Source: Flavobacteriales bacterium | GTDB lineage: Bacteria > Bacteroidota > Bacteroidia > NS11-12g > UBA955 | Direction: 5' to 3' | Assembly (NCBI GenBank): GCA_947496375.1 | Contig: CANMCY010000006.1 | Span: forward strand, 1-64,000 | DNA: 64,000 nt | Shown here: piece after piece, positions 4,180 through 64,000 of the stretch | Layout: each line of letters begins with the position of its first letter | Numbering within the stretch: position 1 is the first letter of the stretch | Position numbers and translations under genes: made by a program | Notes under the pieces: model-generated | Told to the model about the DNA's origin: nothing | Seen by the model: the letters and a program-made list of their open reading frames with translations, nothing else | Databases searched by the model: none

Positions 4180-4187
4180 TAACTTTG
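4180..4187 (+). promoter_or_regulatory. -7 element of the gpmI operon, leaderless spacing
   Basis: TAACTTTG, exact match to TAnnTTTG, followed by four bases and then the gpmI ATG at 4192. A TTG at 4162-4164 is a possible -33 element. The predicted transcript start falls on the start codon. Confidence 0.65.
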
Positions 4188-4191
4188 CAGC

Positions 4192-5691
4192 ATGTCGGAA
4201 AAAGCAGCACTCGTGATTCTGGATGGCTGGGGCATAGGAAGGCATGACCGCAGCGATGCTATTTGGAATGCCAAAACCCCTTTCACCGATATGCTGTGGG
4301 ATACTTTTCCTCATGCTTCGCTGAGAACTGATGGCGAACATGTGGGTTTGCCGGAAGGGCAAATGGGAAACAGTGAAGTGGGCCACATGAACATTGGTGC
4401 CGGGCGGATTGTCTGGCAAATGCTTGTGCGCATCAACAAAGCATTCTCTGATGGCAGCATTTCCGAAAACACCATGCTGCAAAAGGTTTTTGCCTGCAAA
4501 GGCAAATTGCACCTCATGGGTCTGGTGAGTGACGGTGGTGTGCATTCTCACATTGATCATGCCATTGCGTTAGGCAAAATGGCCGCAGAAGCAGGCGTGA
4601 AAGATGTATTTATACATGCTTTTCTGGATGGCAGGGATACCGATCCCAAAAGTGGATTAAACTTTATTAAACGCCTTCAGGACGAGTTAAATGGAACTGG
4701 GGTAAATCTTAGTACCGCTGTGGGTAGATATTACGCCATGGACCGCGACAAGCGCTGGGAACGCGTAAAAAAGGCCTATGACCTGATGGTAAATGGCGTA
4801 GGAGAATATGTAGCGTCTGCCGAAGCCGGTATTGCTGCCCAATACGAAGCCGGCATCACCGATGAATTCATGGAGCCCCTGCGCTTTTTGCCGGGTTCCG
4901 AGGGGCTGATATGTGAGGGTGATACGGTGTTGTGTTTTAATTTTCGCACCGACCGCGGACGGCAAATAACAAGGGCGCTCACACAGGAAAACTTCCCCGA
5001 TCAGGGAATGCGTGCCCTGATTCTGGATTATTATACCCTCACCGAATACGATGAGACTTTCAAAATAGCGGGCGTAATTTTTGAAAATCAGAACCTGACC
5101 GATACGCTGGGCGATGTGCTTTCGGCTGCCGGCAAAACGCAGTTGCGTGCCGCTGAAACTGAAAAATATCCCCACGTTACCTTTTTCTTCTCAGGCGGCA
5201 GGGAAGAGCCCTTCTTAGGCGAGGAGCGCATCATGGCCGCTTCGCCGAAAGTGGCCACTTACGATTTGCAACCGGAAATGAGTGCGCACGAGCTTACCCA
5301 AAATGCCATCGCTTTTCTCGAGGAGAAACAACCCGATTTTATTTGTCTCAATTTTGCCAATCCGGATATGGTAGGCCATACCGGTGTTTTTAATGCCATT
5401 GTGAAGGCCTGTGAAACGGTAGACGACTGCCTGAGAAGACTAGTGGAAGTAGGTTTGAAGCACCAATACCACTTTCTTATCATTGCCGATCATGGCAATG
5501 CAGATATGGCCGTGAATGAAGATGGATCGCCTAATACCGCGCATACCACAAATCCTGTTCCCTGCTGGCTCGTAAGCCAAACAATCAATCCGCACCTGCA
5601 CAATGGGATACTGGCTGATGTGGCACCCACCATTCTGAAAATGATGCAACTTCCACAACCTACGGCCATGACGGGGAGGGCGCTGTTTTGA
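4192..5691 (+). CDS. gpmI: 2,3-bisphosphoglycerate-independent phosphoglycerate mutase
   Basis: The 499-aa enzyme interconverts 3- and 2-phosphoglycerate in glycolysis with two Mn ions. The alkaline-phosphatase-like metal site begins at D11 in VILDGWGIG. The phosphorylated nucleophile is S61 in QMGNSEVGH, and the phosphotransfer domain carries HIDHAIALG and FLDGRDTDP. Late metal ligands appear in NPDMVGHTG and ADHGNAD. Length is standard. It heads a four-gene rightward operon with the lipoprotein, aldehyde dehydrogenase and thiL. No ribosome binding site is seen; its promoter box ends only four bases before the ATG. Confidence 0.97.
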   Translation: MSEKAALVILDGWGIGRHDRSDAIWNAKTPFTDMLWDTFPHASLRTDGEHVGLPEGQMGNSEVGHMNIGAGRIVWQMLVRINKAFSDGSISENTMLQKVFACKGKLHLMGLVSDGGVHSHIDHAIALGKMAAEAGVKDVFIHAFLDGRDTDPKSGLNFIKRLQDELNGTGVNLSTAVGRYYAMDRDKRWERVKKAYDLMVNGVGEYVASAEAGIAAQYEAGITDEFMEPLRFLPGSEGLICEGDTVLCFNFRTDRGRQITRALTQENFPDQGMRALILDYYTLTEYDETFKIAGVIFENQNLTDTLGDVLSAAGKTQLRAAETEKYPHVTFFFSGGREEPFLGEERIMAASPKVATYDLQPEMSAHELTQNAIAFLEEKQPDFICLNFANPDMVGHTGVFNAIVKACETVDDCLRRLVEVGLKHQYHFLIIADHGNADMAVNEDGSPNTAHTTNPVPCWLVSQTINPHLHNGILADVAPTILKMMQLPQPTAMTGRALF

Positions 5692-6239
5692 GGTTCCTGT
5701 TAGTTACCCCGTTGGTTGTGTTGTTGGCATGCAATAGCAATTCCGGCAAGGTCCGTCTGCAATCCGGATTGCCTGATATTAAAGTGTATTTTCAGGAAGA
5801 AATTAAAAAATTGTCAGCAGATCAGCCCGGCCTGGATAAAACAATTTCTATGGGGGATGAGATTGCTGCATTCAGCGAGGATTCCCTGGATTGGGCTACT
5901 GAATTACTTCCTTTTACTGCCCTGGATATGATGTCTGCCTCCTACTCGCAGGCTTTCAATGTGACTGCCGACAGCAATGAGCGACTGAGCATCACCCGTT
6001 TCAGTGCCAAAGACACTGCACTGGAAATTCAGGAAATCAGTCTCACGCGCCGCAATTATAACCTGGAAATGATGGAGATTAAAACCCGCAAACGCAGTAT
6101 GTGGGTAGACCGGGATCAGGTGCTAAGTTATTTGCCCGGAAAGGGTTATAATATTATGATAACAGAAGATTACATTTGGTCTTCACCTAAGCGAACTGAA
6201 ATAATGGGTACTTTTAAACGACAGCAATTCAAACCATGA
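5688..6239 (+). CDS. predicted lipoprotein of unknown function
   Basis: The 183-aa protein is not recognised. It starts with TTG overlapping the gpmI stop (TTGA). This start is chosen because it gives a full lipoprotein signal, RFLLVTPLVVLLAC, with lipobox LLAC and Cys at residue 15; the next in-frame ATG would remove it. The mature part is mixed alpha/beta and charged, with an Arg/Lys-rich stretch (LTRRNYNLEMMEIKTRKR) near residue 130. A membrane-anchored envelope role is inferred. It overlaps the next ATG by 4 bases, so translation is coupled in the gpmI operon. Confidence 0.75.
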   Translation: MRFLLVTPLVVLLACNSNSGKVRLQSGLPDIKVYFQEEIKKLSADQPGLDKTISMGDEIAAFSEDSLDWATELLPFTALDMMSASYSQAFNVTADSNERLSITRFSAKDTALEIQEISLTRRNYNLEMMEIKTRKRSMWVDRDQVLSYLPGKGYNIMITEDYIWSSPKRTEIMGTFKRQQFKP

Positions 6240-7672
6240 TCAGCATAAACCATTTTATCAACGGCGAATTTGTTGCGCCCACCGGCGGCGAATACCTGGA
6301 TAATTTTAATCCTGCCACCGGAGAGGTTTTTGCAAAAATTGCAAACGGTACAAGCCATGATGTGCAAAAAGCCGTAGATGCAGCTAAAATCGCATTCCCT
6401 GCATGGAAAGCCATGCCGTCCGAAGATCGTTTTCGCATCCTGAATGCCATTGCAGAAGGGATTGAAGCCAACCTGGAGGAATTGGCCGCGGCTGAAAGCC
6501 GTGATCAGGGAAAGCCCCTTTGGTTGTCAAAATCTGAGATGCTGCGTGCATCGCAGAATTTCAGGTTTTTTGCTACTGCAGCGGTTCAATTTGCCTCAGA
6601 AAGCCATCAGACCGATACCCGTGCCATTAATTATACGCTCAGACAACCGGTGGGAATTGTGGGATGTATAAGTCCCTGGAATCTGCCCCTGTATCTTTTC
6701 ACTTGGAAAATAGCACCCGCACTGGCTGCCGGAAACTGCGTAATCGCCAAACCCAGTGAGTTTACTCCCCTCACAGCCCATTTATTCTGTGAGATCGCGA
6801 AAAAGGCCGGTTTGCCTCCCGGGGTACTGAATGTGGTTCATGGTTTAGGTAGTACCTGTGGTCAGGCGATTGTGGAGCATCCTGAAATCAAGGCCATTTC
6901 CTTCACCGGGGGAACATCCACCGGCAAACATATTGCCGCTGTGGCCGCACCCATGTTTAAAAAACTTAGTCTGGAACTGGGAGGTAAAAATCCCAATATC
7001 ATATTTGATGACGCAGATCTGAACGAGGCGGTGAAGACCAGCGTGCGTTCTTCATTCCTCAACCAGGGTGAAATATGCCTTTGCGGATCCAGAGTATTCG
7101 TACATACCCGTGTGTATGGTGCTTTCAAAGCCGCACTGTTGCAGGAAGTGGCCAAAATGCAGGTGGGAGACCCGTTTGATGAAAAAACCCGGGTTGGTGC
7201 CATTGTTTCAAAGCCCCATTTTGATAAGGTTTTGTCATATATCGAACTTGCCAAACAGGAGGGAGGTACGATTTTATGCGGTGGAGAATCCGTAAAACCT
7301 GCCGGATTAGAAAGTGGTTGGTTTATTGCACCCACCATCATAGAGGGTCTGAATGCCACCTGCCGCACCAATACGGAAGAGATTTTTGGTCCGGTGATTT
7401 CTTTGATTCCATTCGATACGGAAGAGGAAGTGTTGGAGATGGCCAACGGAACCGCCTACGGACTGGCTTCTACTTTGTGGACCAATGACTTGAAAAGAGC
7501 CCACCGGATGGCGGAGGCACTTCATTCGGGCATTGTATGGGTGAATTGCTGGTTGCTGCGCGACCTCCGCACCCCGTTTGGCGGCGTAAAACAAAGTGGC
7601 GTAGGGAGAGAGGGCGGATGGGAGGCCATGCGATTCTTTACTGAACCTAAAAATGTGTGCATAGCTTATTAA
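6236..7672 (+). CDS. NAD-dependent aldehyde dehydrogenase (2-aminomuconate/hydroxymuconate semialdehyde type)
   Basis: The 478-aa enzyme oxidises an aldehyde to the acid. It has the Rossmann part (SPWNLPLYLFTWKIAPALAA), the catalytic Glu in KLSLELGGKNP and the catalytic Cys at C281 in NQGEICLCGSR, with the C-terminal EIFGPVISL and PFGGVKQSG. The GEICLC active-site context resembles ALDH8-type 2-aminomuconic and 2-hydroxymuconic semialdehyde dehydrogenases of the kynurenine or catechol meta-cleavage pathways. This is a family-level inference. A RidA protein resembling 2-aminomuconate deaminase is at 45.4 kb. Its start overlaps the upstream lipoprotein by 4 bases. Confidence 0.88.
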   Translation: MISINHFINGEFVAPTGGEYLDNFNPATGEVFAKIANGTSHDVQKAVDAAKIAFPAWKAMPSEDRFRILNAIAEGIEANLEELAAAESRDQGKPLWLSKSEMLRASQNFRFFATAAVQFASESHQTDTRAINYTLRQPVGIVGCISPWNLPLYLFTWKIAPALAAGNCVIAKPSEFTPLTAHLFCEIAKKAGLPPGVLNVVHGLGSTCGQAIVEHPEIKAISFTGGTSTGKHIAAVAAPMFKKLSLELGGKNPNIIFDDADLNEAVKTSVRSSFLNQGEICLCGSRVFVHTRVYGAFKAALLQEVAKMQVGDPFDEKTRVGAIVSKPHFDKVLSYIELAKQEGGTILCGGESVKPAGLESGWFIAPTIIEGLNATCRTNTEEIFGPVISLIPFDTEEEVLEMANGTAYGLASTLWTNDLKRAHRMAEALHSGIVWVNCWLLRDLRTPFGGVKQSGVGREGGWEAMRFFTEPKNVCIAY

Positions 7673-7675
7673 AAT

Positions 7676-8769: not shown

Positions 8770-8777
8770 TAATTTCG
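8770..8777 (+). promoter_or_regulatory. -7 element of aspS, leaderless spacing
   Basis: TAATTTCG, one mismatch to TAnnTTTG, is followed by four bases and then the aspS ATG at 8782. Confidence 0.45.
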
Positions 8778-8781: not shown

Positions 8782-10530
8782 ATGTACCGATCGCACACTT
8801 GTGGAGAATTGAAATTGGCCGATGCCGGTAAGGTAGTGACCCTTGCCGGTTGGGCTGCACGCATCCGAACCATGGGAGGTATGGCCTTTATCGATATCCG
8901 TGACCGCTATGGAATTACCCAGCTGGCATTTAATGAGGGATATGATGCAGGCATTCTTGAGCAGGCATCGCAAATAGGTCGTGAGTTTGTAATTCAGGTC
9001 ACCGGAAAGGTGGCAGAGCGGGAAAGTAAGAACCCTCAGATACCTACCGGTGATGTGGAGGTAATTGTTACAGAATTCAAAATACTGAATCCTGCCAAAA
9101 CTCCGCCATTTCTGATTGAAAATGAAACTGACGGTGGTGATGACCTCCGCATGCAATATCGTTACCTGGATTTACGCCGCGAGGTAGTTCGCGCAAATAT
9201 GGTACTGCGGCACAAAATGGCCCAGGAAGTTCGACGCTACCTCAGCGACTCGGATTTTATTGAGGTAGAAACTCCGGTGCTTATTAAAAGTACCCCGGAG
9301 GGAGCCCGAGATTTTGTGGTTCCCAGTCGTCTCAATCCCGGACAGTTTTACGCGCTGCCACAAAGTCCGCAGACCTTTAAGCAATTGCTTATGGTGAGCG
9401 GTTTTGACCGATACTTTCAGATTGTGAAGTGCTTCCGCGATGAGGATTTGCGTGCCGACCGACAGCCCGAGTTTACACAGATAGACTGCGAAATGAGTTT
9501 TGTGGAGCGTGAAGATATTCTGCATGTATTTGAGGGGCTTACCCGTCATTTGTTTCAAAAAGTGAAAGGTATTGACCTTCCTGAAGTCCCGATGATGTCA
9601 TACGCGGATGCCATGCAATTCTATGGTTGTGATAAACCTGATTTGCGATTTGATATGCGCTTTGCGGATTTAAATGACATGGCTAAAGGCAAAGGATTCG
9701 GGGTTTTTGACAATAGTGAAGCTGTGATTGGTATTTGTGCACCGGGTGCTGCGTCCTATACGAGAAAGCAACTGGATGAATTGACAGATTTTGTAAAACG
9801 CCCTCAGATTGGTGCAACCGGTCTCATTTATTGTAGGGTAGAAGCTGATGGAACATTCAAATCGTCGGTAGATAAGTTTTTTGATCAAAACGCGCTTTCC
9901 GGCTGGGCTGCTGCGTGTGGTGCCAACCCCGGTGATTTGATATTGGTTTTGGCCGGTCCTCTCAATAAAGTACGCAAGCAGATGAATGAATTGCGTTTGG
10001 AAATGGGTACCCGATTGGGGCTGCGCGATCCATTCAATTATAAGCCGTTGTGGGTGATTGATTTTCCCCTGCTGGAGCAGGATGAGGAAAGTGGCCGATG
10101 GCATGCAATGCATCACCCCTTTACCAGTCCGCTACCCGAGGATATTCACCTAATGCAATCCGATCCGGGAGCAGTTCGTGCCAACGCCTATGACCTGGTA
10201 ATCAATGGTGTGGAAGTGGGCGGTGGAAGCATTCGCATACACAATCGCAGTTTGCAGGAACGCATGTTTGAATTGCTGGGTTTCACCCCAGAACAGGCCC
10301 GTGCCCAGTTTGGCTTCCTCATGGATGCTTTCGAATACGGGGCGCCTCCACATGGAGGAATTGCCTTTGGCTTCGATCGGCTGTGTAGCTTATTCGGTGG
10401 CAGTGAAACCATCCGCGACTATATTGCATTCCCCAAAAACAATGCAGGCCGCGATGTAATGATAGATGCTCCTTCTGCCCTGGATCAGGAACAACTTGAT
10501 GAACTTTCGGTATCAGTAAAACAGCGCTGA
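8782..10530 (+). CDS. aspS: aspartyl-tRNA synthetase
   Basis: The 582-aa class II synthetase charges tRNA-Asp (possibly also tRNA-Asn; none of the Gln/Asn amidotransferase genes is in view). The N-terminal OB anticodon-binding domain covers roughly residues 1-110 ([17 protein letters not shown] onward). Class II motif 2 reads [19 protein letters not shown] bacterial GAD insertion domain occupies roughly 280-420, and motif 3 is [15 protein letters not shown] near the C-terminus. Length is typical of bacterial AspRS. It is monocistronic, and its end overlaps the convergent dgkA by 18 bases. Confidence 0.97.
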
Positions 10531-38852: not shown

Positions 38853-38860
38853 TAATATTG
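38853..38860 (+). promoter_or_regulatory. -7 element of the deoxynucleoside kinase gene, leaderless spacing
   Basis: TAATATTG, one mismatch to TAnnTTTG, followed by four bases and the ATG at 38865. Confidence 0.45.
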
Positions 38861-38864: not shown

Positions 38865-39482
38865 ATGGCCATGCACATTGCAATTGCAGGAAACATAGGG
38901 GCTGGAAAGACAACGCTGACCCATTTACTTGCCAAAAATTACGACTGGGAAATGCAGTTGGAGGATATGGATGACAATCCTTACATATCTGATTTCTATG
39001 AAGACATGCAAAGATGGAGTTTTAACCTTCAGGTATATTTTTTAAATACCCGATGGAAACACATCCAGAATATCAGAAAGGGGAGCAGGGCTGTTATTCA
39101 GGACAGAACCATTTATGAGGATGCTTACATCTTCGCTCCCAATCTTCATGCAATGGGGCTAATGAGCACCCGTGATTTTGAAAATTACAATGCGCTGTTT
39201 GAAAATATCAGCCAGCAGATAACACCGCCCGATCTTTTGATTTATCTCAGAGCGGGAATTCCTAAGCTGGTTCACCAGATACAAATGCGTGGACGTGATT
39301 ATGAGGATGCCATAAGACTTGATTATCTCAAAAGACTAAATGAACGCTATGAGGCCTGGATTAGTGAATACAAGGGTAAGTTACTGGTATTTAATGTAGA
39401 TGATATAGACTTTTCGGATAACCCTGACCATGCATCGCTCATAGTTCAGCAGGTAGAGAGTACCTTAAACGGGCTCTTCTAA
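38865..39482 (+). CDS. deoxynucleoside kinase (deoxyadenosine/deoxyguanosine kinase family)
   Basis: The 205-aa kinase phosphorylates purine or pyrimidine deoxynucleosides for salvage. P-loop AIAGNIGAGKTTLT is at the N-terminus, the ERS-like substrate motif reads QDRTIYEDAYIF, and the LID region has QMRGRDYEDAIRLDYLKRLN. It belongs to the dCK/dGK-like superfamily, different from the tdk-type thymidine kinase at 60.1 kb. Its stop overlaps the ATG of the thioesterase (TAATG). Exact nucleoside preference is not predictable. Confidence 0.92.
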   Translation: MAMHIAIAGNIGAGKTTLTHLLAKNYDWEMQLEDMDDNPYISDFYEDMQRWSFNLQVYFLNTRWKHIQNIRKGSRAVIQDRTIYEDAYIFAPNLHAMGLMSTRDFENYNALFENISQQITPPDLLIYLRAGIPKLVHQIQMRGRDYEDAIRLDYLKRLNERYEAWISEYKGKLLVFNVDDIDFSDNPDHASLIVQQVESTLNGLF

Positions 39483-39916
39483 TGCCCCTTAACACCCGGG
39501 TTCATACCACGTTGCTGCAGGTAAGGCCGGATGATATTGATTTATTTGGCCATGTGCACAGCAGCCGCTACATGGATTATGTATTTGCCGCCAGACTGGA
39601 ACAAATGGAGAGGTGCTATGGTATGCCTTTGCAGGAATTTATGCAGCATAATCTGGGCTGGTATTTGTCTGCAACTGAAATGCGTTACCTGAAGCCATTA
39701 AAATTGGGAGACAGTATGAAGGTGCAAACAGCAATTGTAAGTATGGGGACTGCCTCTGTTAGGGTGGAATTTGCCATTCTGAGGGATGCTGATGATGTTC
39801 TTTGCTGTAAAGGATGGGCAGAATATGTCATGGTGGATTTAAAAACCGGCCGTCCAAGACCCATTCCTGAATGGATCATTAATCGTTATTCGCTTCCCGA
39901 CGATTCAATTTCGTAA
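39482..39916 (+). CDS. acyl-CoA thioesterase (4HBT hotdog family)
   Basis: The 144-aa single hotdog-fold protein hydrolyses an acyl-CoA thioester. The motif VRPDDIDLFGHVHSSRYMDY is the 4-hydroxybenzoyl-CoA thioesterase/YbgC signature with the catalytic Asp and His-containing helix start. The substrate is unknown. It is translationally coupled to the upstream kinase by a one-base overlap. The TAA stop codon is itself the beginning of the promoter box of the next gene. Confidence 0.88.
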   Translation: MPLNTRVHTTLLQVRPDDIDLFGHVHSSRYMDYVFAARLEQMERCYGMPLQEFMQHNLGWYLSATEMRYLKPLKLGDSMKVQTAIVSMGTASVRVEFAILRDADDVLCCKGWAEYVMVDLKTGRPRPIPEWIINRYSLPDDSIS

Positions 39917-39921
39917 CTTTG
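39914..39921 (+). promoter_or_regulatory. -7 element of the BatA-domain gene, overlapping a stop codon, leaderless spacing
   Basis: TAACTTTG, exact TAnnTTTG match. Its first three bases are the TAA stop of the thioesterase. Four bases separate it from the ATG at 39926. Confidence 0.65.
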
Positions 39922-39925: not shown

Positions 39926-41956
39926 ATGTCCTTTTTGTACCCGGTGTTTTTGTCAGCACTTGCCGTATTGCTGATTCCATTGTTGGTACATCTTTTCAGG
40001 TTTAGAAAGTATCAAACTGTTCGATTTACCCGGGTAAGGTTACTGAATGAAGTTGAAATTGAAACAAAAAATCAAAATCGACTTAAACACCTGATAACCC
40101 TATTGTGCAGAATACTTGCCTTTACCTTCCTGGTTATGGCTTTTGCCATTCCGGGTTGTAACAACAATTCCACGCAAACTACCGGCAAAACCCGGGTAAG
40201 TATTTTTATTGATAATTCTTTCAGTATGGATAACCGCCGGGACGGACAGATTCTGCTGGAAACTGCCAAGCAGCATGCAAGAGAGATTGTCAGGTCTTAT
40301 GGAGTTAACGGGGAATTCCAAATAAGGACCTCCCAGATTTCAGGGCCTTCCTCGCAATTCGTGTCATCAGCCGAAGCCGTTTCTTACATTGATGCCATTA
40401 AAATTCAGCCGGGTTCTCTTGTTTTAGAGACTTTGCTGAAAAGTATGGCTAATGATTTAAAAGAGGCCGGTAATGCCCACGCCGGATTCGTGATTTCAGA
40501 TTTTCAGTTAGGTTTTGTTGGAAAGCCCTCAAATGTTAGCGAACTCAAAGGAATTCCGGTAAAGCTGGTGAAAATAACTTCAAGCCCAAGAGAAAATATT
40601 GGTATTGACTCCGCATGGCTTGCAAAACCCTTTCTCATTCCGGGAGAAAAAAATAGCATTCAGTTCCGAGTGGCTAATTACACTAAGGAACCGCTGCAAG
40701 ACTTTCCCGTGAAATTATATGCTGAAAGCGGGTTGCTGGGTACAGGCCGTGTTTCAGTGATGCCCGGAACGTCAGATATTGGATCGATAGATTTTACAGC
40801 AGAAAATAAACGATATAATCCCGGCAGACTGCAAATTGATGAGCCGGGTGCATCATTTGATAATGTGTTGTACGTCAATCTTAGCGCTCAAACCTCACGA
40901 AATATTAACATAAGCAGTTCCAATAGGTTTGTGAATCAGGTGATTGAAACCCAGCCATTCTTAAAAATAACACCCGCTGTAAATCCCTTTTCCGGTCAGG
41001 CGGCAACCGCAAATGATGTTTACATTTGGGTTGGGCCCGGAAATTTTTCAAAAACACAGGCGGAAAATGTAAAAGATTGGCTTTCTGCTTCCGGAGCTAC
41101 GTGCATCGTTGCTGCTGATATCAACACGCCAAATGATGCGATGGTGAATGTGGTAGGGTTTCCTGATTCGAAATCGGAGAATACAACCCTTCGTATTTCG
41201 GAGAAGGGTTTTACCCATCCATTTTTTGAAGGTGTTTTCAGGCAAATACCTAAAAATATGGCTGTGCCTGAAATTAAGAAATATAGAAGTACTTCAGGAT
41301 TAAACGGTGCAGGAGAAGCCATTTTAACCTTGGAAAATGGGGATCCATTTTTATTGAGGTTTAAGGTAGGTAAAGGTACACTGTATTTTTTCACATCTCC
41401 TTTTCAGGAAGATGCGGGAAATTTTGTGAAAAGCCCATTATTCCTTCCATTGCTTACACACGCCATGATTGCAGAAAACGCAAACCCGCAGTTGTACGGA
41501 ATTTGCCTTTCAAAAACCGTATTGCCTTTGCAAAATGCGTTGAAATACAATGATAAACCACCTGTGTTAAAATTGAATAACTGGGAGTCGGTGGCAGAAA
41601 TGAGCATGACGCCCAATGGACAAGGTTTATATCTGGGTACCCAGCCCGAAAATGCAGGTAATTATACATTATTGGAAAGTGGTTCTGCAAAAATTTTGGG
41701 ATCCGTATCAGTGAATGACAGTCGTCTTGAGAGCAATCCCAATATGGTATTGGAATCTTCATTAAAGCCCTGGATGGAAGCCAATGGTATACAATGGACA
41801 TCCGGAGACAATGCCGTGGCTGCTTATCAGGCCAAAATATCAGACACTTCCTTGTGGCGCTTGTTTATTTGGCTTGCTGCTGTTTTTTTCGCATTGGAAG
41901 TTCTGGTTCTGGTATTTTGGGATTATCGATTTATTAAAAAAAGAAAAAGCGAATAG
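39926..41956 (+). CDS. BatA-domain and vWA membrane protein
   Basis: The 676-aa protein begins with the Bacteroidota BatA N-terminal domain: two membrane helices (FLSALAVLLIPLLVHLFRFR and LCRILAFTFLVMAFAIPGC) around a short loop. A von Willebrand A domain follows with MIDAS DNSFS and the second strand FVISDFQLG. A long beta-rich periplasmic part comes next, and a C-terminal helix (LFIWLAAVFFALEVLVLVF) brings the end back to the membrane with a basic tail KKRKSE. BatA proteins act with MoxR ATPases in envelope or aerotolerance functions; no moxR is adjacent. The next gene starts two bases later. Confidence 0.85.
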   Translation: MSFLYPVFLSALAVLLIPLLVHLFRFRKYQTVRFTRVRLLNEVEIETKNQNRLKHLITLLCRILAFTFLVMAFAIPGCNNNSTQTTGKTRVSIFIDNSFSMDNRRDGQILLETAKQHAREIVRSYGVNGEFQIRTSQISGPSSQFVSSAEAVSYIDAIKIQPGSLVLETLLKSMANDLKEAGNAHAGFVISDFQLGFVGKPSNVSELKGIPVKLVKITSSPRENIGIDSAWLAKPFLIPGEKNSIQFRVANYTKEPLQDFPVKLYAESGLLGTGRVSVMPGTSDIGSIDFTAENKRYNPGRLQIDEPGASFDNVLYVNLSAQTSRNINISSSNRFVNQVIETQPFLKITPAVNPFSGQAATANDVYIWVGPGNFSKTQAENVKDWLSASGATCIVAADINTPNDAMVNVVGFPDSKSENTTLRISEKGFTHPFFEGVFRQIPKNMAVPEIKKYRSTSGLNGAGEAILTLENGDPFLLRFKVGKGTLYFFTSPFQEDAGNFVKSPLFLPLLTHAMIAENANPQLYGICLSKTVLPLQNALKYNDKPPVLKLNNWESVAEMSMTPNGQGLYLGTQPENAGNYTLLESGSAKILGSVSVNDSRLESNPNMVLESSLKPWMEANGIQWTSGDNAVAAYQAKISDTSLWRLFIWLAAVFFALEVLVLVFWDYRFIKKRKSE

Positions 41957-47248: not shown

Positions 47249-47256
47249 TAACTTCG
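47249..47256 (+). promoter_or_regulatory. possible -7 element of the glycosylasparaginase gene
   Basis: TAACTTCG, one mismatch to TAnnTTTG, five bases before the ATG at 47262. The short spacing also supports this start over longer upstream frames. Confidence 0.4.
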
Positions 47257-47261: not shown

Positions 47262-48233
47262 ATGCTGTCCAGAAAAGACTTTTTAAAGCTAACCGGTGCG
47301 GTTTCATTAGCCGGTATGCTGGGTGAAGCCCGGTCTCAGGGTAAATTAAAAACCAAAGCTCCGGTGGTGGTATCTACCTGGGATTTTGGCTTGGAAGCCA
47401 ATGCTGCGGCATGGGAGCTGTTGGTCAAAGGTGGGTATTCTTTGGATGCTGTTGTGGCAGGTGTTGCGATTCCGGAAAAAGATCCAGCCATCAATACGGT
47501 GGGTTTGGGTGGTTTCCCAGACAGAGACGGAAGAGTGACGCTGGATGCATGCGTCATGGATGAGCAGCTGAATTGCGGTTCAGTGGCATGTCTTGAGCAT
47601 ATCATGCACCCTGCGGCTGTGGCAAAGCAGGTTATGGAAAAAACACCGCATGTTATGCTCACAGGAGAGGGAGCGCTGAAGTTTGCGCTGGAGCAAGGTT
47701 TTAAAAAAGAGAATTTACTCACAGCCCAGGCCGAGGCCGCCTGGAAGGAATGGCTCAAGAAATCTGAATATTCGCCGTCTCCAAATTGGGAGCTAAATCA
47801 TGATACCATTGGAATGCTGGCCCTTGACAGGCAAAATCGCCTTTCGGGGGTTTGTACCACCAGTGGAATGGCCTGGAAAATGCATGGCAGGGTAGGAGAT
47901 TCACCCATTATCGGTGCGGGGCTGTATGTGGACGGGGAGGTTGGCGGAGCCACCTGTTCCGGACTGGGAGAAGAGATGATTCGTATAGCGGCTTCTCACA
48001 GTGTGGTGGAGGCCATGCGCAGCGGTAAGAGTGCGCAGTCTGCCTGCGAGGCAGTCATTAAGCGTTATTATCGTAGGCGTGGTGAGGCCGCCAAAGGGAA
48101 ACAGGTTTGCCTGCTGGCCATGGATAAAAACGGTAATGTAGGGGCTTACAGTCTGATGCCGGGTTTTGTGTATGCTTTAACCTGCAATGGTGTTCATGAA
48201 ATTCGCAAAGCAGCATACCTGTTGGATGCATAA
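47262..48233 (+). CDS. N4-(beta-N-acetylglucosaminyl)-L-asparaginase family Ntn hydrolase
   Basis: The 323-aa protein is a glycosylasparaginase-type hydrolase that cleaves itself before a catalytic Thr; HDTIGMLALD marks the site (Thr as new N-terminus of the beta chain). Substrate-side motifs GLGGFPDRDGRVTLDA and GRVGDSPIIGAGLYVDG plus GGATCSGLGEEMI are typical. The N-terminus SRKDFLKLTGAVSLAGML is a Tat-like signal with RK instead of RR, so a periplasmic location is probable. It would remove sugar from Asn-linked glycans. Terminator follows; divergent from xerC. Confidence 0.9.
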   Translation: MLSRKDFLKLTGAVSLAGMLGEARSQGKLKTKAPVVVSTWDFGLEANAAAWELLVKGGYSLDAVVAGVAIPEKDPAINTVGLGGFPDRDGRVTLDACVMDEQLNCGSVACLEHIMHPAAVAKQVMEKTPHVMLTGEGALKFALEQGFKKENLLTAQAEAAWKEWLKKSEYSPSPNWELNHDTIGMLALDRQNRLSGVCTTSGMAWKMHGRVGDSPIIGAGLYVDGEVGGATCSGLGEEMIRIAASHSVVEAMRSGKSAQSACEAVIKRYYRRRGEAAKGKQVCLLAMDKNGNVGAYSLMPGFVYALTCNGVHEIRKAAYLLDA

Positions 48234-51906: not shown

Positions 51907-52638
51907 CTATCTCCCGACAAGGAAAATGCAGGGTTTTTTCCCTAATGTGACTTTGGATGCTTTCCATGCAGCTACGGTCTGTGTTTTGATAAATCCGTCA
52001 GTTTCATGCAGATTGCAGGCAATGCATATTTTTAAGGAATCATTCAGGATGCCCAACAAATGTATCAGTAACCGGTCTGATCGGTAGGGTGCCTCTATCA
52101 GCGCCTGTGTGTAGTCGGTTTTTTCGCAATCTTTCCCCAATTTCCCTACAAAAGTTCGCAGTTCTTCTTCCTTAACCGGTGCATACCCATGAAAGCAGAA
52201 TTGCTGTCCGTTAAGCCCGCTTCCACTAAGTGCCAGCAGCAAGCTGGACGGACCGGTAACCGAGATTACGGGAATGTCCTGCCCGTGCGCCCAGGAGGCA
52301 ATCTCAGCTCCGGGATCTGCCATGCCCGGCACCCCTGCTTCACTGGCCACCCCAATGTTGCCATTTCGTATGTTGTCATTCAAAAATTGAATCAGGGAAA
52401 TTTTATCATAATCCCTGTATAATTCAAAAATGTTGAGTTTTTCAATATCTATGGAAAGCTTAAGTGACGAAACAAAGCGCCTGAAAGTGCGCGCATTTTC
52501 TACAACCCAGCAATGAATTTCGGTGATGTGAGATTCGAATTCACGATGAAACATGCTGTCTGCAGACATGCTGCCCAGAGGCATTGGCATCATGACCAAA
52601 GTGGCTTTTTTTTGACTTTTAATTGGAATATTTTCCAT
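51907..52638 (-). CDS. SAM-dependent methyltransferase, RsmI-like tetrapyrrole-methylase fold
   Basis: The 243-aa protein has the RsmI/tetrapyrrole methylase core: NIGVASEAGVPGMADPGAEI (SAM loop), ISVTGPSSLLLALSGSGL and FCFHGYAPVKEEE. RsmI 2'-O-methylates C1402 of 16S rRNA. This shorter form with a divergent N-terminus is common in Bacteroidota beside true RsmI, so the exact target is uncertain. The ATG at 52638 is divergent from the C25 peptidase ATG with only 11 bases between them. Confidence 0.85.
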   Translation of the reverse strand: MENIPIKSQKKATLVMMPMPLGSMSADSMFHREFESHITEIHCWVVENARTFRRFVSSLKLSIDIEKLNIFELYRDYDKISLIQFLNDNIRNGNIGVASEAGVPGMADPGAEIASWAHGQDIPVISVTGPSSLLLALSGSGLNGQQFCFHGYAPVKEEELRTFVGKLGKDCEKTDYTQALIEAPYRSDRLLIHLLGILNDSLKICIACNLHETDGFIKTQTVAAWKASKVTLGKKPCIFLVGR

Positions 52639-52645
52639 AATTTTG
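52638..52645 (+). promoter_or_regulatory. -7 element of the C25 peptidase gene, leaderless spacing
   Basis: TAATTTTG, exact TAnnTTTG match, four bases before the ATG at 52650. Its first base is the first base (on the other strand) of the divergent methyltransferase start codon, so the rest of this promoter lies inside that gene. Confidence 0.65.
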
Positions 52646-52649: not shown

Positions 52650-55600
52650 ATGAAATCTCGGTTCAGAAAGTTTGCCCTGTTAATTTCATTGGCTCTTTCC
52701 GGTTTACCGAATTGCTTCTCGCAAACCTACGGCAATGAGTGGATAGATTGGACACAGTTCCATGGCAAAATCAAAATCTGGAAGGATAATGTCTATCGGC
52801 TGGGTTATTTTTCTATTGAACCCTGGTTTACTTCAAGGGGCTTGTTTCTCAATAATATTCCTATCTCAGACTTTGCCATGTACAATATGGGCAGGCAAAT
52901 TCCGGTGTATATCTATGATCAGAATTCAAATAACCGGCTGGATGCATTTGATTACATAGAGTTTGTGGGTCATCCTGCAAGCGGAGAAATAGATCAGGGT
53001 TTGTATGATAAGCCCGAACATCAGCGGCATCAGTTAAAAAACATGATGTCAGACACCAATGTATATTTCTTTACCCTCAGGCCGGGAAGAAAAAACCTGA
53101 GATTCACGGCATTCAATGGTGTTTCCTCGATGCCTGCACGCAATTACCACATCAGCAGGTTTGTATATGCCCCGGACATTAATTATTGTGAGGGCGATTA
53201 TATGGCTTTGGGCAGTCATGCGGTTTTTTACAGTGAATACATGGCAGGTGAGGGCTTTGTAGGCGATTATTTCTGGGCACCAAGCCAGTATTCAGTCATA
53301 TTAAAGCATCCCGATTTGAGTTCTCAGGGCCCAATGGCGACACTGGAGGCCGGTTTGACGGCCCATACGCCTCCTCCCGCGGGCAGTACTTTGCCCAATA
53401 ACCGATTCACCATGCAAATTAGCGTGGATGGCAACGGTAAGAAGCTGCTTTCGGATACGACATTTCTGGGAGTAATGCCAATAACACAGCGGATAAGCAT
53501 TAATACATCAGACATGGGGCAGGACCAGTCGTTTCTGCTGTTCAACCCTCAGCTGGTGAACGGTGCCAAAAGCAGCATGTATGGTCATTCTCATACCATT
53601 CTTGACTACCCGCGAAAAAATGATTTCAAAGACTCATCCCGATACTTTTTCTACGAGGATACCGCCTTTGCCGCCCATCAGGAAGTTTGGAATAACTATG
53701 GAAAGGCAAGTCAGAATGCGCCGGTTTTCTATGATGAAGTTAATGCACTCCGCTATACAGGCAATGTTGATGCGACTACCCGCAGTCTGAGTGTGGTTGT
53801 GCCGCCTATGCCTCTGAGGGGCCGCATTTCCCTGATTGATGAAAGCCGTGTGGAGATGTTGCCATTTTTCAGGATGGATACAGTATCTCAAATTAATTAT
53901 AATTTTCACGTAGGTAATTGTGAGTTTTTGATGGTCTCCAGTCGGTCATTGGTTAGTCCCAAAGGCGAACTCAATGATTACAAGGCGCTGCGTGAAAACC
54001 GATACAGTGTGCAGTTGAACCTGGTGCAAAATCTGTATGATTATTTTAGTTTTGGATTACCCCACCCACTGGCCATCCGAAATTACTGTAAGTTTCTGAT
54101 TGAAAAGAGCAGCCCTTCATCACAGCCCAGGTTTTTACTAGTGATTGGGCGAGGATATGATAATGCCTACAACCGGGGCAACGGATTTAATCAGTTACGC
54201 CCACTCCAGAAATTTAATCATGTACCCACCATTGGTCATCCTGTCAGTGACTGGATGTTTACCTCAGGATTGGGAAATGCCAAGCCCATGGAGCCGGCCA
54301 TTGCTACCGGGCGCATTCCTGCGGACAGTGCAAAGGATATCAGTATTTATCTGGATAAACTAAAAGGATATATCCGGCCGGAAAACAATTATCAGGAATG
54401 GCAAAAACAGGTGCTTCACTTAAGCGGTGGCTCCAATGCCAACGAAACCAGTATCATCAAAAATATAGTAGATGGCCTTCGCGTATATCCTGAAGGGGAC
54501 CCCTTTGCCGGTGTGGTTACCCAGTTTTCAAAGTCCTCGGTAGGGATTGTGGATCCTAATTTTAAAGATAAAATTGTAAGCCGCATCAACAGCGGAACCA
54601 GTCTGATTTCATTCCTGGGGCATGGCAGTCTTTCCGTTACTGACATTGACATGGGCACTCCGGAAAAATACCTGAACGAGGGTAAATATCCCATTTGTTA
54701 TTTCAATGGATGTCAGGTAGGGAATCCTGCTTTGCCTACTACACAAAAGGGTTTGGGTGAGCGTATTTTTCGTGGGGAGAAGAAAGGTGCTATTGCCTTT
54801 ATGGGTCAGGTTTCGCTCAGTGAATTGTATACCATCAGTTCACAAATGCGATATTTTTATGAAATTTATTTTGATTCAACCCCTAATAAAACCCTGGGTG
54901 GTGTGCTCAAAACCATGTTGGCCAGGTGGCAAAACCCCTCGTCTTCGCTGAATAAAATTCACGCCAGACAATTGTTTTTACAGGGAGATCCTGCGGTTGC
55001 CGTATACACCCCGCAGCTTCCTGATTTGAGTATTGGCAGTGAGAGCATTTTTCTGAAACCTGAGAATGCATTTGCACTGATGGATAGTTTTGATGTGGGT
55101 GTGGTGCTACGCAATTACGGACGGGGTATTAAAGACAGTTTTTCCGTAAACCTTCAGTGGACATACCCTGATGGAGTGACCAAAAGATATTACGGTACCC
55201 GTGCCACCCAGCGCGGTTTTGAAGATACTCTTTTCATACGGGTGGCATCAAAAGATGTTCAGGTAAAGGGCGAAAACTTCTTTAATGTGACCATCAATAA
55301 GGAAAAAAATCCTGACGAATATACCTACCTCAACAACGCAGCTACCCTAAAGCGCTACATACCCGGCAATGGGGTAAATCTGGTTTCACCGAAGAATTTT
55401 GCCATTTGGGGCAGAGATACTGTGACGCTGGTTGCGCAGGCAGGGGATGTGTTTAAGCAAAATGAAGATTATTATTTTGAAATTGACACCACCCCGCGAT
55501 TTAACAGTCCCTTACTTATTTCCCTTGAAAAGCAGGGAAAGCCGTTGAATCGACCCATAATGGCTCAATGGTCAGTGAAATTGCCGCTGCTGAAAGATAC

Positions 55601-57734
55601 CCTTCCTTACTACTGGAGGGCCCGTATCAGTGCTTCCGTAAATGAGGGAGGGGGCTGGCAGACCGGTTCGTTTACCTACATTAAAGGCCACCAGGAGGGA
55701 TGGATGCAAAATGTGCACTGGCAATATGTGAAACCGGTTTCCGAAAATGTACTCTCCGGACTAACGGTTGATTCAGCCACAAAAAGTTTGAGATTTAAGA
55801 AGGTTCTCAAGAAAATTTATATTGACTGTCAGTACATGTACCATCCCAATAAAGGGGTAAAGGAGGGTGGATTTGGCGGACAGGATATGAACTGGGGTGT
55901 TTGTAAGGAAGGATTGGTAGCCATACCTTGGAACGGGAAAAAATTATTGCGTGAAGCGGTTGATCCCTCCAAAGTCTGGCCGGATTGCTGGCCCGGAGCC
56001 CTGTGGAGCACCTTGGGGCATAATATCGATGAACAGCTATACTATGCTTTTCAAATGAATCTGGAGTCTGAACAGGATAAGTTTATCAATTTTATCAATG
56101 CGCTGCCGGATAGCAACTATGTAACCATATTCAGCAGAAGGCAAAATTTTGCCAATACCTGGAAGCCCGAAGTAATGGAAGCACTCAATGAAATTGGCAG
56201 CAATATATTTGACAGTGCTCAATACCGCACCGCTGACGCCATGTGGGTATGTCTGGGTAAGAAAGGCAGTAAACCCGGCACCGCGCAGGAAAAACATACG
56301 TTTGGGTCAGTTGCTGCCTATGTGGGAGTGGAAGGAGATATGCTGGGAGATGCCAATACCGGCTACATGAAGAGTGAACGAATCGGGCCTGTTGACCGTT
56401 TTGGATCAATGTATTCAAGACCGATACTGACCCGGATACCCAAGGCGGAGAGCGATAAGTTTGATATTTCGGTGTATAGCGTCGATACCGGAGGAAATGA
56501 GCAGCCGCTGCTGGTATCGGATTCAGTGCTTACCCAACACGATTTTTCTGCTGTCAATACCCAAAAATTCAAGTATATTTATTTAAAGGGGCAGTTTACG
56601 GATCTGGCCGGCAATACAGCCCCCAATCTGCTGCACTGGCGCGTTACCCATGCCCCCGTTCCCGAAGGTACGCTTTACCCGGCTCCCCTTGCAGGATATA
56701 AGTTTTACAACGATACGCTGTATGAAGGCGATACTTTCCGCATTGTGTTGCCATTTAAAAACATCAGTAAGGTAAGTTTCAGGGACAGTATTGACATGGA
56801 ATTCAAGATGTTTCACAAGGTTACCCGTACGGAAATTAAAGCAGGAAAAATGCGGTTTGCAGCCCTGCAGCCGGACTCGATATTGGTTTTCAGGGAAACA
56901 CTCCCCACCCTGGGTTTGAGCGGCCCCTATGCCCTCCAAATTGCGTTTAATGCCGGTTTTAAACAGCCGGAGTTAACCATGGCTAACAATGCGGCCCTTC
57001 TTAATTTTTATGTACAGAAAGATGTTATCAATCCGCTGTTGGATGTAACATTTGACGGGAAACACATCATGAATGGTGAAATTGTGAGCCCGTCACCGTT
57101 CATTTTGGTGAGCAGCAAAGATGAAAATCAGCATTTGTTGCAGTCTGATTCACAAAAGATGATGCTGTTTATCAAGAAGCCGGGCTCCGGTAGCTTTGAG
57201 CAGGTAAGTGGCCAGGAGCTGGTTTATTCCCCTGCGAATAGTAGGCAAAACCGCGCAAGCATGGAATATAGACCTTTAGATCTGGCCGACGGAAATTACA
57301 TACTTAAGGTGCAGAGCTGGGATTATTCGGGTAATCAGGCGGGACGCAACGATTATGAAATAAGTTTCAATGTAGTGAGAGAAAAGACGGTAACACGGTT
57401 CTATCCATATCCCAATCCGTTTACCAGTAAAATGCGCTTTGTGTTTACCCTCACGGGAACGCGCATACCCGAAGAGATTCGTGTGAAAATCATGAATGTT
57501 GAGGGCCGCGTAGTGAAAGAGGTGAGCAAAGAGGAACTCGGAAATCTGCGTATTGGTAATAATATCACGGACTGGACATGGGACGGGACCGACCAGTTTG
57601 GAGACAGACTGGCGAATGGTACCTATTTTTATAAAGTTACCGTTAAAGACGGTGGCGAAGAGCTGAAGCTGCGAGCCACCAAAGGTGATGCTTCTTTTAA
57701 AGAGCAGGTAGGGGTAATTTACCTGATGCGTTAA
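52650..57734 (+). CDS. porU2: C25-family cysteine peptidase, putative type IX secretion sortase PorU2
   Basis: The 1694-aa exported protein has a signal peptide (KFALLISLALSGLPNCFS), an N-terminal beta-rich region, and a gingipain-like C25 peptidase domain at roughly residues 470-790. The catalytic His is H658 in FLGHGSLS and the Cys is C688 in FNGCQVGNP, spaced as in gingipains, so it looks active. Long Ig-like and beta modules follow. The end (FYPYPNPFTSKMRFVFTL, WDGTDQFGDRLANGTYFYKV) resembles a FlgD-like/type A sorting region. The size and order match proteins named PorU2; PorU itself is near 1100-1300 aa. It would process or anchor type IX cargo at the cell surface. Confidence 0.8.
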   Translation: MKSRFRKFALLISLALSGLPNCFSQTYGNEWIDWTQFHGKIKIWKDNVYRLGYFSIEPWFTSRGLFLNNIPISDFAMYNMGRQIPVYIYDQNSNNRLDAFDYIEFVGHPASGEIDQGLYDKPEHQRHQLKNMMSDTNVYFFTLRPGRKNLRFTAFNGVSSMPARNYHISRFVYAPDINYCEGDYMALGSHAVFYSEYMAGEGFVGDYFWAPSQYSVILKHPDLSSQGPMATLEAGLTAHTPPPAGSTLPNNRFTMQISVDGNGKKLLSDTTFLGVMPITQRISINTSDMGQDQSFLLFNPQLVNGAKSSMYGHSHTILDYPRKNDFKDSSRYFFYEDTAFAAHQEVWNNYGKASQNAPVFYDEVNALRYTGNVDATTRSLSVVVPPMPLRGRISLIDESRVEMLPFFRMDTVSQINYNFHVGNCEFLMVSSRSLVSPKGELNDYKALRENRYSVQLNLVQNLYDYFSFGLPHPLAIRNYCKFLIEKSSPSSQPRFLLVIGRGYDNAYNRGNGFNQLRPLQKFNHVPTIGHPVSDWMFTSGLGNAKPMEPAIATGRIPADSAKDISIYLDKLKGYIRPENNYQEWQKQVLHLSGGSNANETSIIKNIVDGLRVYPEGDPFAGVVTQFSKSSVGIVDPNFKDKIVSRINSGTSLISFLGHGSLSVTDIDMGTPEKYLNEGKYPICYFNGCQVGNPALPTTQKGLGERIFRGEKKGAIAFMGQVSLSELYTISSQMRYFYEIYFDSTPNKTLGGVLKTMLARWQNPSSSLNKIHARQLFLQGDPAVAVYTPQLPDLSIGSESIFLKPENAFALMDSFDVGVVLRNYGRGIKDSFSVNLQWTYPDGVTKRYYGTRATQRGFEDTLFIRVASKDVQVKGENFFNVTINKEKNPDEYTYLNNAATLKRYIPGNGVNLVSPKNFAIWGRDTVTLVAQAGDVFKQNEDYYFEIDTTPRFNSPLLISLEKQGKPLNRPIMAQWSVKLPLLKDTLPYYWRARISASVNEGGGWQTGSFTYIKGHQEGWMQNVHWQYVKPVSENVLSGLTVDSATKSLRFKKVLKKIYIDCQYMYHPNKGVKEGGFGGQDMNWGVCKEGLVAIPWNGKKLLREAVDPSKVWPDCWPGALWSTLGHNIDEQLYYAFQMNLESEQDKFINFINALPDSNYVTIFSRRQNFANTWKPEVMEALNEIGSNIFDSAQYRTADAMWVCLGKKGSKPGTAQEKHTFGSVAAYVGVEGDMLGDANTGYMKSERIGPVDRFGSMYSRPILTRIPKAESDKFDISVYSVDTGGNEQPLLVSDSVLTQHDFSAVNTQKFKYIYLKGQFTDLAGNTAPNLLHWRVTHAPVPEGTLYPAPLAGYKFYNDTLYEGDTFRIVLPFKNISKVSFRDSIDMEFKMFHKVTRTEIKAGKMRFAALQPDSILVFRETLPTLGLSGPYALQIAFNAGFKQPELTMANNAALLNFYVQKDVINPLLDVTFDGKHIMNGEIVSPSPFILVSSKDENQHLLQSDSQKMMLFIKKPGSGSFEQVSGQELVYSPANSRQNRASMEYRPLDLADGNYILKVQSWDYSGNQAGRNDYEISFNVVREKTVTRFYPYPNPFTSKMRFVFTLTGTRIPEEIRVKIMNVEGRVVKEVSKEELGNLRIGNNITDWTWDGTDQFGDRLANGTYFYKVTVKDGGEELKLRATKGDASFKEQVGVIYLMR

Positions 57735-57755: not shown

Positions 57756-57763
57756 TACCTTTG
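57756..57763 (+). promoter_or_regulatory. -7 element of the DUF6787/mrp unit, leaderless spacing
   Basis: TACCTTTG, exact TAnnTTTG match, four bases before the GTG at 57768. Confidence 0.6.
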
Positions 57764-57767: not shown

Positions 57768-58070
57768 GTGTCCTGGATTGATAACCTGAAGCGGCGCTGG
57801 AATGTAGAATCAGCCGGAAAAGTATGGATAATTTTGTGTGTTTTTGCCCTCACAGGTACCACCATCATGTTTCTTAGGCGCTTTCTTAAAGCAGAATTTG
57901 ACTGGGCCAATGAGAAATGGTTTACGTATTCTTACTATTGGTTAATTCTGCCCATTTATAACGCAGTATTGTTGTTGTATGGTGCACTGTTTGGTCAGTT
58001 TCGGTTTTTTTGGGAATTTGAAAAACGTTTTTTTGGCAGATTGGTTAGTGTTTTCAAAAGAAAATCATGA
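57768..58070 (+). CDS. small two-span membrane protein (DUF6787-like)
   Basis: The 100-aa protein starts at GTG (M/VSWIDNLKRRWNVESAGKVW). It has two membrane helices, VWIILCVFALTGTTIMFLRR and YYWLILPIYNAVLLLYGALF, and a basic aromatic C-terminus (FFWEFEKRFFGRLVSVFKRK). I associate it with a Bacteroidota family called DUF6787 without known function. The GTG is supported by the promoter box four bases upstream and by the mrp ATG overlapping its stop (ATGA), which couples the two genes. Confidence 0.7.
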   Translation: MSWIDNLKRRWNVESAGKVWIILCVFALTGTTIMFLRRFLKAEFDWANEKWFTYSYYWLILPIYNAVLLLYGALFGQFRFFWEFEKRFFGRLVSVFKRKS

Positions 58071-63551: not shown

Positions 63552-63571
63552 CTGAATAAGGCGGGGTTAAC

Positions 63572-63579
63572 TACCTTTG
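63572..63579 (+). promoter_or_regulatory. -7 element of the enoyl-CoA hydratase gene, leaderless spacing
   Basis: TACCTTTG, exact TAnnTTTG match, four bases before the GTG at 63584. Confidence 0.6.
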
Positions 63580-63583
63580 TGCT

Positions 63584-64000
63584 GTGGAACTGGTTATAAC
63601 AGAAATTAAAAACCGTGTAGGGTATGTGGTGCTGAACCGCCCTGAAAAGCGCAACGCGCTGAGTCCTCAGCTGGTGAGTGAACTAACGGCAGCCATACAG
63701 GATTTTTTATACGATGAGACCGTGAAGGTAATTGTCTTAAAATCGGCGGATAAGCCCTTTTGTGCCGGGGCTGATCTGGCATATTTACAGGAACTCAGGC
63801 ATTTCAGCCGCGAGGAAAACCTCGCAGATTCGAGGCGTTTGCGTGATTTGTTTGATCTGATACATCGCGGCAACAAGGTTTTTATTTCGCAGGTTGAGGG
63901 TCCCGCGCTTGCAGGTGGATGTGGACTGGCCACGCTCTGTGATTTCTGCTATGCAAGTCCCGAGGCCACATTTGGCTATACCGAAAGTAAAATTGGATTT
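63584..64000 (+). CDS. enoyl-CoA hydratase/isomerase family protein (3' end outside window)
   Basis: The first 139 codons of a crotonase-fold enzyme are present, starting at GTG (V/MELVITEIKNRVGYVVLNRP). KRNALSPQLV, the oxyanion loop KPFCAGADLAYL and the second oxyanion motif GPALAGGCGLATLCDFCYA are typical of enoyl-CoA and methylglutaconyl-CoA hydratases. The catalytic Glu appears in FGYTESKIGF at the window edge. The GTG is supported by the promoter box four bases upstream and by the conserved N-terminus. It could work with the acyl-CoA dehydrogenase at 48.5 kb in acyl-CoA breakdown. Confidence 0.9.
   Translation, partial: MELVITEIKNRVGYVVLNRPEKRNALSPQLVSELTAAIQDFLYDETVKVIVLKSADKPFCAGADLAYLQELRHFSREENLADSRRLRDLFDLIHRGNKVFISQVEGPALAGGCGLATLCDFCYASPEATFGYTESKIGF

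What the first reader, a model, noticed from the sequence alone, without database searches (positions are those of the whole stretch)
4180..63586. Recurrent TAnnTTTG box exactly four bases before start codons: predicted leaderless mRNAs
Seen directly: exact TAnnTTTG boxes end four bases before the start codons at 4192, 39926, 52650, 57768 (GTG) and 63584 (GTG). One-mismatch boxes have the same four-base gap at 8782 and 38865, and a five-base gap at 47262. An exact 8-mer with two free positions is expected about once in 4096 sites, so five matches at one fixed spacing among about 60 genes is far above chance. In Bacteroidota this box is the -7 promoter element, which would put the transcript start on or within a base or two of the ATG/GTG. 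Other genes here have the box at 6-34 bases, so leaderless starts look like a distinct class. The leaderless genes include gpmI, aspS and the C25 peptidase.
Basis: partly seen in the sequence, partly recalled or inferred. Interest (0 to 1): 0.75.

Follow-up and report, generated by a model that had tools for sequence, protein, structure and literature searches.

The report
Promoter boxes abutting start codons
In this lake bacterium many genes carry the promoter box so close to the start codon that their messenger RNA should begin at, or within a few letters of, the first codon, which suggests that translation without a leader is common in this branch of the Bacteroidota.

Summary
In detail: five exact TAnnTTTG boxes end four bases before the named starts (P about 2e-9). 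In a sample of the same genome (670 called genes) TAnnTTYG stands at gap 4 in 37 against 0.6 expected, with almost nothing below gap 3. Two corrections. Box plus gap is 12 bases, so TAA/TAG boxes at gap 4 are in-frame stops, which sharpens the peak in gene calls; stop-free boxes give a plateau at gaps 4-7 here, while a family relative keeps a true spike at 4 (20 against 6, 6, 6). And leaderless genes grade into leaders of 1-8 nt, together 58% of the box excess. Spacing is conserved: gpmI gap 4 in 22 of 30 loci; DUF6787 in 16 of 30, 14 with GTG. The aspS box stands at gap 4-5 in near relatives and at 19-26 in 46 of 79 loci. Published mapping puts the start point 4-5 nt after this box, so leaderless or nearly leaderless mRNA is likely. 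Such mRNA is a known minority class in Bacteroidota; its high share in this lineage is the new part. No RNA data were available.

The parts
4180..4187 (+). TAACTTTG box, gap 4 before gpmI ATG 4192 (gene 4192-5691)
   Evidence: Pfam iPGM; gap 4 in 22 of 30 loci
8770..8777 (+). TAATTTCG variant box, gap 4 before aspS ATG 8782 (gene 8782-10530)
   Evidence: Pfam; orthologues
38853..38860 (+). TAATATTG one-mismatch box, gap 4 before deoxynucleoside kinase ATG 38865; weakest of the set, that variant is not enriched at gap 4
   Evidence: variant TAnnATTG gap 4 count 1 in this genome
39914..39921 (+). TAACTTTG box, gap 4 before BatA-domain gene ATG 39926 (39926-41956); its TAA is the stop of the ORF 39482-39916
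   Evidence: orthologues
47249..47256 (+). TAACTTCG variant box, gap 5 before asparaginase-family ATG 47262
52638..52645 (+). TAATTTTG box, gap 4 before C25 peptidase ATG 52650 (52650-57734)
57756..57763 (+). TACCTTTG box, gap 4 before DUF6787 GTG 57768 (57768-58070)
   Evidence: gap 4 in 16 of 30 loci, 14 with GTG
63572..63579 (+). TACCTTTG box, gap 4 before enoyl-CoA hydratase family GTG 63584 (gene runs off the window)

Best explanation
The boxes are -7 elements of the Bacteroidota housekeeping promoter. RNA polymerase starts 4-5 nt after the box: on the first base of ATG or GTG at gap 4, or one to a few nt before it at gaps 5-8. These mRNAs are leaderless or almost so, and ribosomes must start on a 5'-terminal or near-terminal codon without a Shine-Dalgarno sequence. 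In this genome and in G172 such short spacing is the commonest arrangement among genes with a recognisable box. Shown by sequence: position, lower edge, conservation, need for room upstream. Inferred: transcript 5' ends, sigma factor, mode of ribosome binding.
For: Gap histogram with an edge: TAnnTTYG counts at gaps 0-8 are 2, 0, 1, 5, 37, 20, 9, 20, 11, background 0.60. Stop-free boxes at gaps 3-8: 4, 16, 13, 5, 10, 5 here and 1, 20, 6, 6, 6, 2 in G172. Altered control 8-mers stay at 0-1 at gap 4 in both genomes. Conserved spacing in gpmI, with TAC/TAT boxes in 13 of the 22 gap-4 loci, and in DUF6787 with GTG. Gap-4 box found in 1 of 142 and 0 of 119 genes lying under 9 nt behind a codirectional gene, against 36 of 528 and 25 of 268 elsewhere. 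Exact-box gap-4 starts: ATG 22, GTG 7, TTG 0 here; ATG 20, GTG 2, TTG 0 in G172. Published: 4 or 5 nt between -7 element and start point in F. johnsoniae (PMC6847099, passages); box at -12 to -5 in F. psychrophilum (PMC9723704, passages).
Against: No transcript data. No -33 TTG beside gap-4 boxes (1 of 29 here, 4 of 22 in G172, internal boxes 23 of 175 and 3 of 37). In this genome raw ATG counts for stop-free exact boxes show no peak at 4 (12, 13, 11, 13, 14 at gaps 3-7, background 6.6, background maximum 14). The gap-4 rate does not fall in close codirectional pairs as a whole (11 of 213 under 30 nt, 26 of 457 others, P 0.86; in G172 4 of 163 and 21 of 224, P 0.006). G171 and G159 of the same family have more leadered boxes than short ones.
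Confidence: 0.85

Rival explanations
1. Ascertainment artefact: box (8) plus gap (4) is 12, so TAA/TAG boxes are in-frame stops, and gene callers or readers then take the next ATG as the start.
For: Five of eight window sites carry TAA in frame. TAG boxes appear at gap 4 (4) and hardly elsewhere. Stop-free boxes lose the lone spike in this genome.
Against: Stop-free boxes still give 16 at gap 4 against 0.34, and 20 against 0.12 in G172; TAA-led control 8-mers give 0-1 at gap 4. The raw ATG count for G172 stop-free boxes is 23 at gap 4 against 2.7. gpmI orthologues align from residue 1 or a few residues in and keep the gap with TAC/TAT boxes.
Confidence: 0.04
2. The box is an mRNA signal for ribosome binding at a fixed distance from the start codon, not a promoter.
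For: Fixed spacing; in this genome the same gap-4 rate in close codirectional genes and the rest.
Against: Nearly absent where genes overlap or lie under 9 nt apart (1 of 142, 0 of 119), though there the box would also have to fit inside the upstream coding sequence. The same box with the same following pyrimidine lies 13-60 nt before other genes, and the aspS box stands at gap 19-26 in other Bacteroidota. It is the published sigma box.
Confidence: 0.04
3. The boxes are promoters but the true start codons lie downstream, so the mRNAs are leadered.
For: GTG or TTG codons follow within 30 codons at several sites; my caller placed the BatA start at 40136.
Against: gpmI, DUF6787 and BatA orthologues align from or close to residue 1; GTG at gap 4 is kept in 14 DUF6787 loci; the abrupt lower edge follows the called starts.
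Confidence: 0.06

Closest known systems
Bacteroidota -7 element promoters (sigma-ABfr; F. johnsoniae PMC6847099, F. psychrophilum PMC9723704, B. thetaiotaomicron PMC7366714; passages)
   Same: Same box, avoidance of G in the two free positions at gaps 5-12 (0% and 1% here, 3% and 0% in G172), pyrimidine after the box, no clear -33 element as in F. johnsoniae.
   Different: There leaders dominate: 87% over 10 nt in F. johnsoniae, 5.5% leaderless in F. psychrophilum, about 3.7% of 5' UTRs under 10 nt in B. thetaiotaomicron. Here gaps 3-5 hold 30% and gaps up to 12 hold 58% of the box excess.
Leaderless ('TA-led') genes of Zheng et al. 2011 (PMC3160421, passages)
   Same: Promoter box about 10-12 nt before the start codon taken as a sign of leaderless mRNA.
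   Different: They used Pribnow-like boxes and found such genes in 1 of 37 Bacteroidetes/Chlorobi genomes, naming other promoter types as a limit of the method.
Non-SD starts of the FCB group (StartLink, PMC9581028, passages; Nakagawa 2017, PMC5397173, passages)
   Same: No Shine-Dalgarno use: core motif before 13 of 670 starts, 9 in the control stretch. [quoted passage not shown]
   Different: StartLink assigns FCB genomes to leadered, AT-rich non-canonical sites; Nakagawa infers from base composition, not from a named box at a fixed gap.

Membership tests
Bacteroidota -7 element promoter | TAnnTTTG (TAHHTTTG) box at a position set by the transcription start | tested here: met
   Position-specific excess with a lower edge; TAnnTTCG also works (8 at gap 4, background 0.11), twelve other altered boxes give 0-2 at gap 4 here and 0-4 in G172
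Bacteroidota -7 element promoter | Start point 4-5 nt after the box | not testable with these tools
   No RNA data; the sharp drop below gap 3-4 is what it predicts
Bacteroidota -7 element promoter | -33 TTG/TTTG element (reported for B. fragilis and B. thetaiotaomicron; little evident in F. johnsoniae, so not taken as defining) | tested here: not met
   TTG at spacers 17-22 in 1 of 29 gap-4 boxes, 23 of 100 boxes at 13-60, 23 of 175 internal boxes
Leaderless mRNA | Transcript 5' end on the start codon | not testable with these tools
   Inferred from box spacing only
Leaderless mRNA | Start codon able to act as purine start point (ATG, GTG) | tested here: met
   Exact-box gap 4: ATG 22, GTG 7, TTG 0 here; ATG 20, GTG 2, TTG 0 in G172; one TTG among 16 gap-4 DUF6787 loci
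Leaderless mRNA | No Shine-Dalgarno | tested here: met
   13 of 670 with a core motif, control stretch 9; G172 13 of 387, control 5

The most novel reading that the evidence does not exclude
In this family of lake Bacteroidota, leaderless or nearly leaderless (0-8 nt) mRNAs are the main output of housekeeping promoters, so that starting on a 5'-terminal codon, including a conserved GTG, is the default for first genes of transcripts. It arose by sliding the -7 box toward the start codon (aspS is the worked example), and a more distant lineage of the phylum (family f23) did the same independently.
Probability: 0.4. Interest if true: 0.68.

Novelty: new member of a known kind. Interest (0 to 1): 0.5.

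Why it matters
Bacteroidota make little use of Shine-Dalgarno signals, and how they choose start codons is an open question; in model species leaderless mRNA was judged too rare to be the answer (PMC6847099). This lineage would be a natural case where it is common, with matched genes such as aspS that are leadered in relatives. Gene finders could also use the box to fix start codons.

Tried and rejected
Rejected: a separate class at exactly gap 4 in this genome, because stop-free boxes are spread over 4-7. The internal in-frame ATG control was set aside, because in-frame TAA/TAG boxes cannot occur there; altered 8-mers and raw ATG counts replaced it. The search tool's backwards-pattern control was replaced by gaps 100-106 of the same pattern. 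One search missed reverse-strand loci (12 and 15 of 30 placed) and was redone. A 16S rRNA search of the genome found nothing, so the anti-Shine-Dalgarno could not be read. I suspected that the gap-7 genes hid a start codon one codon upstream; only 1 of 18 has one there (GTG). An odd base composition of the own-genome sample (G+C 0.42) came from 72 kb that read N; without them the 20-kb blocks lie at 0.42-0.50. Of 119 other-class genomes I turned 24 into ratios, picked by hand to include all eight of f23.

Paper searches used: nine of ten. None of their listings showed me a study of a Bacteroidota lineage with prevalent leaderless mRNA; most subscription papers are not held.

Full report
Observation. 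The box as a string is not over-represented in the window (50 found, 52.9 expected), so the point is position. At the measured background of 0.0008 per gene, five or more of 60 genes at gap 4 has P = 1.7e-9.

Genome sample. 670 genes were called by coding score and start codon alone, blind to upstream motifs. TAnnTTYG counts at gaps 0-8 are 2, 0, 1, 5, 37, 20, 9, 20, 11, background 0.60 per gap. C in the seventh place is a working variant: TAnnTTCG has 8 at gap 4 against 0.11; twelve other altered boxes have 0-2 at gap 4 here and 0-4 in G172. Raw counts over the first 464 kb, which need no gene calls, give 23 ATG at gap 4 against 7-9. Over the whole genome the exact pattern with ATG occurs 85 times at gap 4 against 39.1 per gap at 100-106; gaps 19-25 show no excess (264 against 274). 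With GTG it is 38 against a backwards control of 32, a weak excess.

A bias found. Eight box letters plus four make 12, so a TAA or TAG box at gap 4 is an in-frame stop and pushes start calling to that ATG; five of the eight window sites are of this sort. With stop-free boxes (TAC, TAT) this genome has 4, 16, 13, 5, 10, 5 at gaps 3-8 (background 0.34): a plateau with a hard lower edge, not a lone spike. Raw ATG counts for stop-free exact boxes are flat over gaps 3-7 (12, 13, 11, 13, 14, background 6.6). The lower edge is what a start point 4-5 nt after the box predicts, since a start codon upstream of it cannot be translated.

Size of the class. Of the excess of boxes at gaps 3-60, gaps 3-5 hold 30% (bootstrap 24-36%) and gaps up to 12 hold 58% (51-66%) here; G172 has 39% (28-51%) and 72% (61-85%). 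With stop-free boxes: 30% and 53% here, 43% and 74% in G172. G154, G012 and G041, of the same class but other families, together have 7 stop-free boxes at gaps 3-12 and 35 at 13-60, against 108 and 89 for this genome plus G172 (P = 6e-6). These comparators are small (47-100 genes each). G172, G041, G115 and G144 were sampled because their pattern counts were high. Short gaps are not confined to this family: shares at gaps 3-5 and up to 12 are 34% and 37% in G115 (same class), 42% and 51% in G144 (another class) and 26% and 57% in G186 (same order, 71 genes). Nor does all of the family agree: G171 has 3 stop-free boxes at gaps 3-12 and 11 at 13-60, and G159 of the same genus (65 genes) has 6 exact boxes at 3-12 and 12 at 13-60.

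Conservation. gpmI: of the 30 best-scoring loci in family and order (own included), 22 have the box at gap 4, 7 at gap 5-12 and 1 has none, down to about 56% protein identity; in 13 of the 22 the box begins TAC or TAT. DUF6787: gap 4 in 16 of 30 (14 GTG, 1 ATG, 1 TTG), 10 at gap 5-12, 1 at 13-52, 3 none. BatA: of 30 loci two had no aligned N-terminus; of 28, 8 at gap 4 (six of them the same genus), 1 at gap 3, 12 at 5-12, 5 at 13-52, 2 none. aspS: of 79 loci placed (80 fetched), exact boxes stand at gap 4 in 5, and by my reading of the rows at gap 5 in 7, at 19-26 in 46 and at 36 in 1; 20 have no exact box, two of which (L051, L061) carry TAATTTCG at gap 4. The loci closest in protein (L051-L062) are short; Mucilaginibacter and Pontibacter with a box are long; but L063, L066 and L067, at 71% identity, are also at gap 4. 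So one gene has two architectures.

Promoter or ribosome signal. Gap-4 boxes occur in 1 of 142 (here) and 0 of 119 (G172) genes that overlap or lie under 9 nt behind a codirectional gene, against 36 of 528 and 25 of 268 elsewhere; in such tight pairs the box would also have to fit inside coding sequence, so the test is suggestive only. Taking all pairs under 30 nt, the rate does not fall here (11 of 213 against 26 of 457) but does in G172 (4 of 163 against 21 of 224, P = 0.006). The same box with the same pyrimidine after it lies 13-60 nt before other genes. Exact-box gap-4 starts are ATG or GTG, never TTG, in both samples; GTG is over-represented here (7 of 29 against 54 of 641, P = 0.01) but not in G172 (2 of 22 against 28 of 365). 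C at -1 is enriched (19 of 29 against 218 of 641, P = 0.001; G172 16 of 22 against 148 of 365, P = 0.004). No -33 TTG is seen. Shine-Dalgarno cores: 13 of 670, control 9; G172 13 of 387, control 5.

Wider survey. Exact box with ATG, gap 4 against one-seventh of gaps 100-106. Order: 68 genomes, median 1.62-fold, 39 with z above 3; genus g96 7.1-fold (2 genomes), this genus 2.4-fold (5), g95 1.3-fold (2), g101 of the sister family 1.3-fold (16). Same class: 38 genomes, median 1.39-fold, range 0.94-5.96, 12 with z above 3. Excess per genome at gap 4 and mean excess per position of gaps 19-25: this genus 49 and -0.5; g95 17 and 16.4; f5 17 and 13.4; f4 38 and 18.8. Of 119 other-class genomes I turned 24 into ratios: f23 (8 genomes) has 3.4-fold at gap 4 and no excess at 19-25; f19 (2 genomes, 12 matches in all) 1.8-fold; the other families 0.89-1.13-fold. 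So a gap-4 excess is widespread, and parts of this family lie at its high end.

Known background, passages only. F. johnsoniae: 4 or 5 nt between box and start point, 87% of leaders over 10 nt (PMC6847099). F. psychrophilum: box at -12 to -5, 5.5% leaderless (PMC9723704). B. thetaiotaomicron: about 3.7% of 5' UTRs under 10 nt (PMC7366714). Zheng 2011: 1 of 37 Bacteroidetes/Chlorobi genomes with leaderless genes, other promoter types named as a limit (PMC3160421). Nakagawa 2017 reads base composition in Bacteroidetes as possibly leaderless and says that the phylum was reported to hold a high fraction of such mRNAs (PMC5397173), which lowers the novelty. StartLink assigns the FCB group to AT-rich non-canonical sites (PMC9581028).

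Organism.

Verdict. The kind is known. Its high share and its conservation in this lineage did not appear in the papers that nine searches listed and I looked into.

Noticed in passing
39914-39921: The TAA of the box is the stop codon of the upstream ORF 39482-39916, so stop codon and promoter share letters. Three more such gap-4 boxes, all with 9 nt between the genes, were found in the own-genome sample.
   Followed up: partly
8770-8777; L051-L130: The aspS promoter box slides from gap 4-5 in near relatives to gap 19-26 in Mucilaginibacter, Pontibacter and others.
   Followed up: partly
57768; L205-L234: A GTG start is kept at gap 4 in 14 of 30 DUF6787 loci, though ATG is the usual start codon in this genome (568 of 670 called genes).
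   Followed up: partly
genomes G027, G059, G086, G101, G105, G113, G136, G144 (family f23, another class of the phylum): 3.4-fold gap-4 excess with no excess at gaps 19-25; a 200-kb sample of G144 also shows it. Unnamed lineage.
   Followed up: partly
own-genome sample, gap 7: A second rise at gap 7 (20 TAnnTTYG boxes against 9 and 11 at gaps 6 and 8), not explained by a hidden start codon; TAA boxes there are in-frame stops too.
   Followed up: partly
G000: No 16S rRNA match in an assembly rated 99.99% complete, probably an assembly gap.
   Followed up: no
52650-57734: The C25 peptidase ends in a FlgD-like domain with weak matches, below the curated cut-offs, to type IX secretion sorting domains.
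   Followed up: no
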